The position numbers and the translations under genes are program-made. Positions 58,370 to 59,321 of a stretch of 64,000 nt of DNA are shown piece by piece. The stretch's first letter is position 1; each line of letters starts with the position of its first letter. Origin of the DNA: Brachyspira intermedia PWS/A (GTDB taxonomy: Bacteria; Spirochaetota; Brachyspiria; Brachyspirales; Brachyspiraceae); NCBI RefSeq assembly GCF_000223215.1, contig NC_017243.1, positions 868,001 to 932,000 of the forward strand. The letters run 5' to 3'. The notes under the pieces were generated by a model. It was not told where the DNA came from and did not search any database. It was given only the letters and a program-made list of their open reading frames with translations.

Positions 58370-58398
58370 TTGACAAATTAAAATGTTTTTAGTATAAT
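58370..58398 (+). promoter_or_regulatory. Perfect, leaderless promoter of the Rpn gene
   Basis: TTGACA and TATAAT (58393-58398) are separated by 17 bases. The ATG at 58405 lies at the predicted transcription start, so the mRNA should be leaderless. Confidence 0.8.
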
Positions 58399-58404
58399 TA
58401 AGTT

Positions 58405-59321
58405 ATGAAAGAAATTAACAGACTCAATGATTTATTTGTACGATATCTAATTGGTACTAAAGGCGATGAGGATATATTAGAAAATATTGTTAATGCTGTT
58501 TTAAATGATGTTGGTTTTGAATCTGTGAGCAATCTTGAAATTATTAATCCTTATAACTTACCTGAAAATGAAAATTTAAAAGAGTCTATTCTTGATGTTA
58601 AAGCAAAAACTAAAGATGGTAAGAAAATACTTATTGAAATACAGTTAGTAGGAAATAACAATTTTATAAAAAGAATATTGTATTACATAGCTAAAAATAT
58701 AGCTTCAGAATTAAAAGAAAGTGATTTATACATTAATATAAGCCAAATGATTAGTATTAGTTTTATCAATTTTAATTTAGATATTGGAAGCGAAACTGAT
58801 ATAAAAAAGAACATAAATGTTTAACATTTTCAGATATTAACAATCCTAATCTTAGACTGGACGATTTTCAGATACATTTTATAGAGATAAAAAGGTTTGC
58901 AGAAATATTAAAAAATGCTAGTATATATGACTATAATAAAAATAAACTTTTATCTTGGATTGATTTTTTTACAACAAAAGATTTAGAAAAAGGAATTGAT
59001 AAACTTATAGGAGGTAATGATATAATGCCTAAAGTTATAGATAAATATAAAAGATTTGTAGCTGATGAAAAAGAGATGTCTGCCTATAATGAAAGAGATA
59101 CTTTTCTTTACGGACAGGCTGCTATGCTTCAGTATGAGAGAGAGGAAGGAAAAAGAGAAGGTATAGAAATAGGTATTCAGAAAGGGATAAAAGAAGGTAT
59201 AGAGAAAGGTATAGAGAAAACAAAAATATCTATGGCTATAAATATGAAGAGAGATAAAGTTGATTTGAATACAATATCAAAATATACAGGATTAAGTATA
59301 GAAGAGATAAAAAAATTATGA
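58405..59321 (+). pseudogene. Rpn / PD-(D/E)XK nuclease family transposase-like protein, frameshifted
   Basis: A full-length Rpn-type protein (about 305 residues) in two frames. The N-terminal part has NRLNDLFVRYLIGTKGDED and the nuclease core SILDVKAKTKDGKKILIEIQL (Asp...Glu-x-Gln). It breaks in an A6 tract (58803-58808); adding one A continues into a typical FSDINNPNLRLDDFQIHFIEIKR. The C-terminus is a Gly-Ile/Glu repeat (GIEIGIQKGIKEGIEKGIEK) and a small helical tail. Rpn proteins are DNA nucleases linked to recombination and anti-phage defence. As read, the nuclease part ends prematurely at 58824. Confidence 0.85.
59025..59321 (+). CDS. Intragenic RpnS-like C-terminal protein
   Basis: A 98-residue ORF in frame with the restored Rpn protein. 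It has its own AGGAGGT ribosome-binding site (59009-59015) about 9 bases before ATG. It would produce only the C-terminal part: a helix, the Gly-Ile/Glu repeat and the tail DLNTISKYTGLSIEEIKKL. In E. coli, Rpn genes encode such internal small proteins that act as antitoxins to the full-length nuclease. That role here is an inference. This part is intact despite the upstream frameshift. Confidence 0.65.
   Translation: MPKVIDKYKRFVADEKEMSAYNERDTFLYGQAAMLQYEREEGKREGIEIGIQKGIKEGIEKGIEKTKISMAINMKRDKVDLNTISKYTGLSIEEIKKL

What the first reader, a model, noticed from the sequence alone, without database searches (positions are those of the whole stretch)
58405..59321. Rpn nuclease gene carrying an internal start with a perfect ribosome-binding site
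Inside the frameshifted Rpn gene, AGGAGGT at 59009 precedes an in-frame ATG at 59025 that would yield just the C-terminal 98 residues. E. coli Rpn loci are reported to encode an intragenic antitoxin of this type, which restrains the toxic nuclease used against phage. Here the nuclease part is broken while the putative antitoxin is intact, the safe configuration for the cell. The long form has a leaderless promoter and the short form a strong ribosome-binding site, so the two could be translated by different routes.
Basis: partly seen in the sequence, partly recalled or inferred. Interest (0 to 1): 0.75.

Follow-up and report, generated by a model that had tools for sequence, protein, structure and literature searches.

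The report
Nuclease gene with internal antitoxin start
Nearly every copy of a bacterial DNA-cutting (Rpn) gene in the spirochaete genus Brachyspira carries a conserved second start signal that should make its C-terminal part separately as a built-in antitoxin, while the full toxin is apparently made from an mRNA with no leader at all; the copy in this window fits the pattern although its toxin half reads as broken.

Summary
In detail: AGGAGGT at 59009-59015 precedes an in-frame ATG at 59025 that opens a 98-residue ORF, the C-terminal part of an Rpn (TIGR01784/PF12784) gene. In this copy alone it is weak evidence, because the encoded I-G-G-N gives such a signal about half the time by codon chance. 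The survey of relatives settles it: 115 of 115 distinct intact Brachyspira rpn ORFs, plus the window piece, have a strong Shine-Dalgarno sequence before an in-frame internal ATG. It lies at this column in 57 and ten codons upstream in 59; none has both or neither, and rare codons (AAG, GAG) are used there. In 105 of 116 the long form starts 5-8 nt after an exact TATAAT and nearly all lack a Shine-Dalgarno sequence, so it is probably leaderless. Best explanation: an RpnL/RpnS gene-within-gene toxin-antitoxin of the E. coli type, in a variant with a leaderless toxin, an SD-led antitoxin and a start about 30-40 codons further upstream. The 'broken nuclease' is less certain: the frame is lost in a short A-run, and the matching published genome was sequenced by 454 at 14x. 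Lesions avoid the antitoxin half only as a trend. Translation and toxicity are not shown.

The parts
58370..58398 (+). sigma-70-type promoter TTGACA-N17-TATAAT, 6 nt before the long-form ATG (predicted leaderless start)
   Evidence: Read. Exact TTGACA-N17-TATAAT-N6-ATG occurs 4 times in the 3.3 Mb genome and 3 of these are rpn genes. Exact TATAAT 5-8 nt before ATG in 105 of 116 rpn starts against 4 of 40 window ORFs.
58405..58824 (+). N-terminal piece of RpnL (139 aa): PD-(D/E)XK core with the D...ExQ motif (D64, E78, Q80 by family numbering)
   Evidence: PF12784 E=1e-25; TIGR01784 E=4e-19; invariant columns.
58803..58808 (+). A-run at which the reading frame is lost relative to intact copies (A_AAA_AAG context)
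   Evidence: The copy L103 has the same lesion. Intact copies exist in the same genome (L105) and at the same locus in a relative (L101/L269).
58800..59321 (+). downstream open frame: end of the nuclease core plus the C-terminal domain
   Evidence: TIGR01784 positions 136-273, E=1e-15.
59009..59015 (+). internal Shine-Dalgarno AGGAGGT (duplex energy -11.6 kcal/mol with the anti-SD)
   Evidence: Conserved in all 57 members of its group; the other 59 members have it ten codons upstream.
59025..59321 (+). predicted RpnS (98 aa), separately translated C-terminal antitoxin
   Evidence: ORF; ATG column conserved; C-terminal match of the family to E. coli RpnA residues 254-288.
59124..59126 (+). downstream Met lying 8 residues before the repeats (the E. 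coli-like distance); weak SD, not the preferred start here
   Evidence: Column +35: 93 ATGs, median -3.2, only 1 at or below -5.
59145..59219 (+). tetrad repeats (G-I-E-K type) of variable number, as in E. coli RpnS
   Evidence: alignment; 0-9 tetrads among copies.
59220..59318 (+). C-terminal domain corresponding to RpnA-S (PDB 7th0)
   Evidence: hhalign E=1.8e-6 over 35 columns for the family profile; 7th0 = RpnA residues 244-292.

Best explanation
This is a degenerate member of a genus-wide family of gene-within-gene toxin-antitoxin genes of the Rpn type. One transcript starts at the long-form AUG (leaderless) and encodes RpnL, a PD-(D/E)XK nuclease. The same transcript carries an internal Shine-Dalgarno sequence and AUG from which the C-terminal 98 residues are translated on their own as RpnS. 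RpnS binds the matching C-terminal domain of RpnL and restrains it. The long form would depend on leaderless initiation at the 5' end and the short form on ordinary SD-led initiation, so antitoxin should be made in excess. In this copy the long form reads as frame-broken while promoter, internal SD and RpnS remain intact. Shown here: the sequence features and their conservation. Taken from the E. coli work: toxicity, inhibition, phage defence. Inferred: leaderless translation and the ratio of the two products.
For: Internal SD plus in-frame ATG in 116 of 116 (57 at this column, 59 ten codons upstream, none both, none neither). The SD is kept although the encoded residues differ (I-G-G-N against K-E-V-N, in another codon register). 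Codons at the site are the rare ones: GAG 70% against 20% elsewhere, AAG 65% against 13% (Fisher 3e-31 and 8e-25, not corrected for relatedness). Synonymous recoding reproduces the SD in only 14% (upstream column) or 38% (this column) of trials. The same scan recovers the proven start of E. coli rpnA, M244 (PMC10327210). 23 of 37 other spirochaete rpn ORFs have an internal SD, mostly near residues 185-205. Leaderless-type promoter in 105 of 116, SD at the long start in 1 of 116. Family and C-terminal domain homology. Tetrad repeats vary in number.
Against: No ribosome profiling, TSS map or toxicity data for Brachyspira were found. Spacing at this clade's site is long (10-11 nt). The start differs from the E. 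coli position. SD accessibility is not better than at random sites. No internal promoter signal was found, whereas E. coli rpn genes have one (PMC10327210). The two groups differ by a single shift, so the 116 copies are not 116 independent observations.
Confidence: 0.75

Rival explanations
1. The internal ATG and AGGAGG are by-products of a conserved protein sequence (an Ile-Met turn at the end of the nuclease core preceded by Gly-Gly or Lys-Glu) and are not used for initiation.
For: The Met column is conserved in nearly all members, also in those whose SD lies ten codons upstream, so the Met itself may have a structural role; I-G-G-N gives the SD about 55% of the time by codon chance.
Against: The SD goes with a different ATG in half of the family and is never missing. 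The codons are the rare ones. K-E-L-N and K-E-V-I contexts give it only 3-4% of the time by chance. Other internal ATGs of the same genes rarely have one.
Confidence: 0.08
2. The frame break is not a mutation: it is a sequencing error in a 454-based assembly, and the gene is intact.
For: By size and plasmid the genome fits B. intermedia PWS/A, which was sequenced with 454 FLX at 14x, estimated 1.5 errors per 10 kb, with gaps finished by Sanger. The break is a length change in an A-run, the classical 454 error (my knowledge). An intact orthologue sits at the same locus in a relative (L101/L269).
Against: A second genome, whose size matches B. murdochii finished with Sanger plus 454, has the same lesion in a paralogue (L103). 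Broken rpn copies are common (about 21 seen).
Confidence: 0.35
3. Programmed -1 frameshifting at A_AAA_AAG joins the two frames, so both a short and a full-length product are made by design.
For: The frame is lost exactly at a heptamer of the kind that slips in E. coli dnaX (dnaX from my knowledge).
Against: Only 2 copies of the subfamily have this heptamer in this register; the others read straight through. No stable structure follows (-3.9 kcal/mol over 70 nt).
Confidence: 0.04
4. RpnS here is kept as an orphan antitoxin that guards against related intact RpnL proteins of the same cell or of incoming DNA, and not as a by-product of decay.
For: Of 16 copies with lesions in one half only, 13 have RpnS intact. 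At this locus two of three orthologues lost the nuclease frame at different points and kept RpnS. A remnant with an intact RpnS frame and SD lies at G000:C2:256748-257005.
Against: The bias is not significant against target length (P 0.13-0.17). In E. coli RpnS is specific to its own RpnL and to repeat number (PMC10327210); the nearest intact paralogue in this genome has a different repeat number.
Confidence: 0.2

Closest known systems
E. coli RpnL/RpnS (RpnA-E, RpnP2; Zhong et al. 2023, PMC10327210; PDB 7th0 RpnA-S)
   Same: PD-(D/E)XK nuclease with an in-frame internal RBS and ATG giving the C-terminal domain; tetrad repeats of variable number; homologous last ~35 residues; TIGR01784 over its cut-off for both.
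   Different: Other Pfam branch (PF12784 here, PF04754 in E. coli); RpnS about 98-110 aa instead of 49; start about 40-50 residues before the repeats instead of 8-20; long form apparently leaderless (E. coli rpnA has an SD at the long start); no internal promoter signal.
Clostridioides difficile Rpn (PMC10327210)
   Same: An RpnS product made from an internal start was shown experimentally outside Enterobacteria.
   Different: The position of its start could not be read here (supplement not available).
Type II toxin-antitoxin operons
   Same: A protein antitoxin binds and blocks a protein toxin.
   Different: Here the antitoxin is the toxin's own C-terminal domain, made in the same reading frame.

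Membership tests
Rpn family (TIGR01784 / COG5464) | PD-(D/E)XK nuclease domain | tested here: met
   PF12784 and TIGR01784 over cut-off for the N piece, TIGR01784 over cut-off for the C piece; intact paralogue E=7e-37.
Rpn family (TIGR01784 / COG5464) | C-terminal domain like RpnA-S | tested here: met
   hhalign E=1.8e-6 to RpnA residues 254-288. Only 35 columns; AlphaFold model too poor to use.
RpnL/RpnS intragenic toxin-antitoxin | internal RBS plus in-frame start conserved in relatives | tested here: met
   116 of 116.
RpnL/RpnS intragenic toxin-antitoxin | repeats beginning 8-20 residues after the RpnS start (a description of known members, not of the mechanism) | tested here: not met
   About 40 residues from 59025, about 50 in the other group.
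RpnL/RpnS intragenic toxin-antitoxin | variable number of four-residue repeats | tested here: met
   0-9 tetrads among 115 copies.
RpnL/RpnS intragenic toxin-antitoxin | internal promoter for the short transcript | tested here: inconclusive
   No sigma-70 signal above synonymous recoding (mean P 0.51); TSS data needed.
RpnL/RpnS intragenic toxin-antitoxin | RpnS is made and neutralises RpnL | not testable with these tools
   Needs expression and growth assays.
Leaderless mRNA | transcription starts at the AUG | tested here: inconclusive
   Promoter geometry conserved in 105 of 116, SD in only 1 of 116; no 5'-end mapping.

The most novel reading that the evidence does not exclude
Brachyspira rpn genes use two translation routes on one mRNA as a switch: the toxin starts on a leaderless 5' AUG and the antitoxin on an internal SD. 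Conditions that favour leaderless initiation or impair SD-led initiation (phage take-over, ribosome damage, change in initiation factors) would then raise the RpnL:RpnS ratio and release the nuclease, without a dedicated sensor.
Probability: 0.25. Interest if true: 0.82.

Novelty: new variant of a known kind. Interest (0 to 1): 0.6.

Why it matters
The E. coli study left open how RpnL is released and noted that RpnL:RpnS ratios vary widely (PMC10327210). A genus in which almost every copy has a leaderless-type toxin start and an SD-led antitoxin start makes one answer directly testable: the ratio may follow the state of the translation machinery. It also extends sequence evidence for the internal antitoxin start to the PF12784 branch and to spirochaetes, and shows that the start can move by tens of codons while the arrangement persists. 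For annotation: up to 40 copies per Brachyspira genome would each encode a second, probably unannotated protein.

Tried and rejected
AlphaFold2 of an intact paralogue on 16 close sequences: mean pLDDT 41, not used. RpnS and RpnL in viral contigs: no relatives. RpnS or the RpnL profile against PDB sequences: no Rpn hit. Internal promoter for RpnS: not above synonymous recoding; one clade has TTAACA-N17-TATAAT about 90 nt upstream of its internal ATG, within the null. SD exposed by RNA folding: not different from random sites. Met 59124 as the true RpnS start: weak SD throughout. Programmed frameshift: heptamer not conserved, no structure. Lesion bias to the nuclease half as proof of selection: P 0.13, not claimed. 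The PADLOC match (C3a178 'putative invertase', E 1e-4) falls on the repeat region and is taken as composition.

Full report
What is there. The window gene at 58405-59321 has a consensus promoter (TTGACA-N17-TATAAT) ending 6 nt before its ATG, an ORF of 139 codons that loses frame in an A-run at 58803-58808, and a second frame open to 59321. In the second frame AGGAGGT (59009-59015) precedes ATG 59025, which opens 98 codons. The two pieces match the start and the end of TIGR01784, the Rpn family; the first matches PF12784. The genome's 16S ends ...CACCTCCTTT. By size (3,304,788 + 3,260 bp) I take the genome to be B. intermedia PWS/A (the 3,260 bp plasmid is in PMC3163572; the chromosome size is from my own knowledge).

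Survey. The genome has 13 PF12784 copies, and 26 of 29 genomes of the family have them, up to 40 each. From about 100 fetched stretches plus search loci I obtained 115 distinct intact ORFs and aligned them with the window's C piece. For every in-frame internal ATG I computed pairing of the upstream region with the anti-SD. Two alignment columns stand out: the column of 59025 (111 ATGs, 57 with energy at or below -7) and a column ten codons upstream (59 ATGs, all 59 at or below -7). Every sequence has exactly one of the two. The type changes once on the tree of the nuclease half.

Is it more than protein conservation? For this copy alone, no: I-G-G-N produces the signal in about 56% of synonymous recodings. 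For others, yes: K-E-V-I 3.5%, K-E-L-N 3.5%, N-L-E-A-S 2.6%; the means are 14% for the upstream column and 38% for this one. In the six codons before the internal ATG, Glu is GAG in 88 of 126 (20% elsewhere) and Lys is AAG in 49 of 75 (13% elsewhere). Other internal ATGs have the signal in 10 of 748. As a positive control the same scan of E. coli rpnA finds ATG 244 behind AAGGAG, the start proven by mutation (PMC10327210). Caveat: the sequences are related, so the Fisher values overstate the independence.

Leaderless long form. 105 of 116 starts have exact TATAAT 5-8 nt before ATG (99 at exactly 6 nt), with TTGACA, TTTACA or TTTACT 16-17 nt further up in most, and only 1 of 116 has an SD. Control: 4 of 40 window ORFs. 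The full exact pattern occurs 4 times in the genome, 3 of them rpn. Leaderless-type promoters may not be restricted to rpn here: TATAAT-N4-8-ATG has 1633 matches against 1284 for the reversed pattern. Other spirochaetes: 22 of 37 have an SD at the long start, 6 of 37 look leaderless-like, 23 of 37 have a strong internal SD. So the internal start is shared widely, while the leaderless long start looks characteristic of Brachyspira among those sampled.

Same as and different from E. coli. Same: family, gene-within-gene layout, variable tetrad repeats, homologous last ~35 residues (the E. coli crystal structure is 7th0). Different: the E. coli protein is PF04754 and this one PF12784; the start lies about 40 (or 50) residues before the repeats instead of the 8-20 reported; the Met at 59124 that would fit has a weak SD in all but 1 of 93 sequences. 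RpnS here is therefore about twice as long.

This copy. Relatives with an empty site (L041-L043) go from the glycosyltransferase stop straight to the acetyltransferase-like gene; in the window, L039 and L040 the promoter begins within 10 nt of that stop, so promoter and gene probably arrived as one unit. Of three genomes with the insert, one orthologue is intact (L101/L269) and one is broken elsewhere (L098). The window's own break is in an A-run of a 454-based assembly at 14x with an estimated 1.5 errors per 10 kb (PMC3163572), so it may be an error. A paralogue in a genome whose size matches B. murdochii (Sanger plus 454) has the same lesion, which suggests that such a lesion can be real. 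Across broken copies, by my manual reading, 13 have only the nuclease half damaged, 3 only the C-terminal half and 5 both; against target length P is 0.13-0.17, a trend only.

Mechanism. Shown: the two start signals and their conservation. From the literature (E. coli): RpnL is a toxic nuclease, RpnS blocks it by binding, the pair limits some phages. Inferred: that Brachyspira RpnL starts leaderless, that RpnS is made in excess from the same mRNA, and that the ratio depends on initiation route. I found no internal promoter signal and no accessibility advantage, so the SD itself is the main predicted driver of RpnS.

Verdict. I rate it a new variant of a known kind.

Noticed in passing
G000:C2:256748-257005 (L253): A 14th locus of this genome keeps an intact RpnS frame with a strong SD while the nuclease half is eroded to a remnant.
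   Followed up: partly
L149 (G007), L162 (G000:C2:3032108-3032791): In these copies a stop codon lies just before the internal start region, so nuclease core and RpnS have become two adjacent ORFs, reminiscent of the separate rpnS genes described in E. coli.
   Followed up: no
whole genome G000: TATAAT-N4-8-ATG is in excess over its reversed control (1633 against 1284), which hints that leaderless genes may be fairly common in Brachyspira.
   Followed up: no
G000:C2:281788-281825 (L263): The only non-rpn exact TTGACA-N17-TATAAT-N6-ATG match leads into a 12-codon ORF followed by a hairpin-like stretch; possibly a leader peptide or a small RNA.
   Followed up: no
L165, L170, L176, L184, L192 (internal, about 90 nt before the internal ATG): Members of the upstream-start group share a TTAACA-like/N17/TATAAT site inside the gene that could be an internal promoter; not above the recoding null.
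   Followed up: partly
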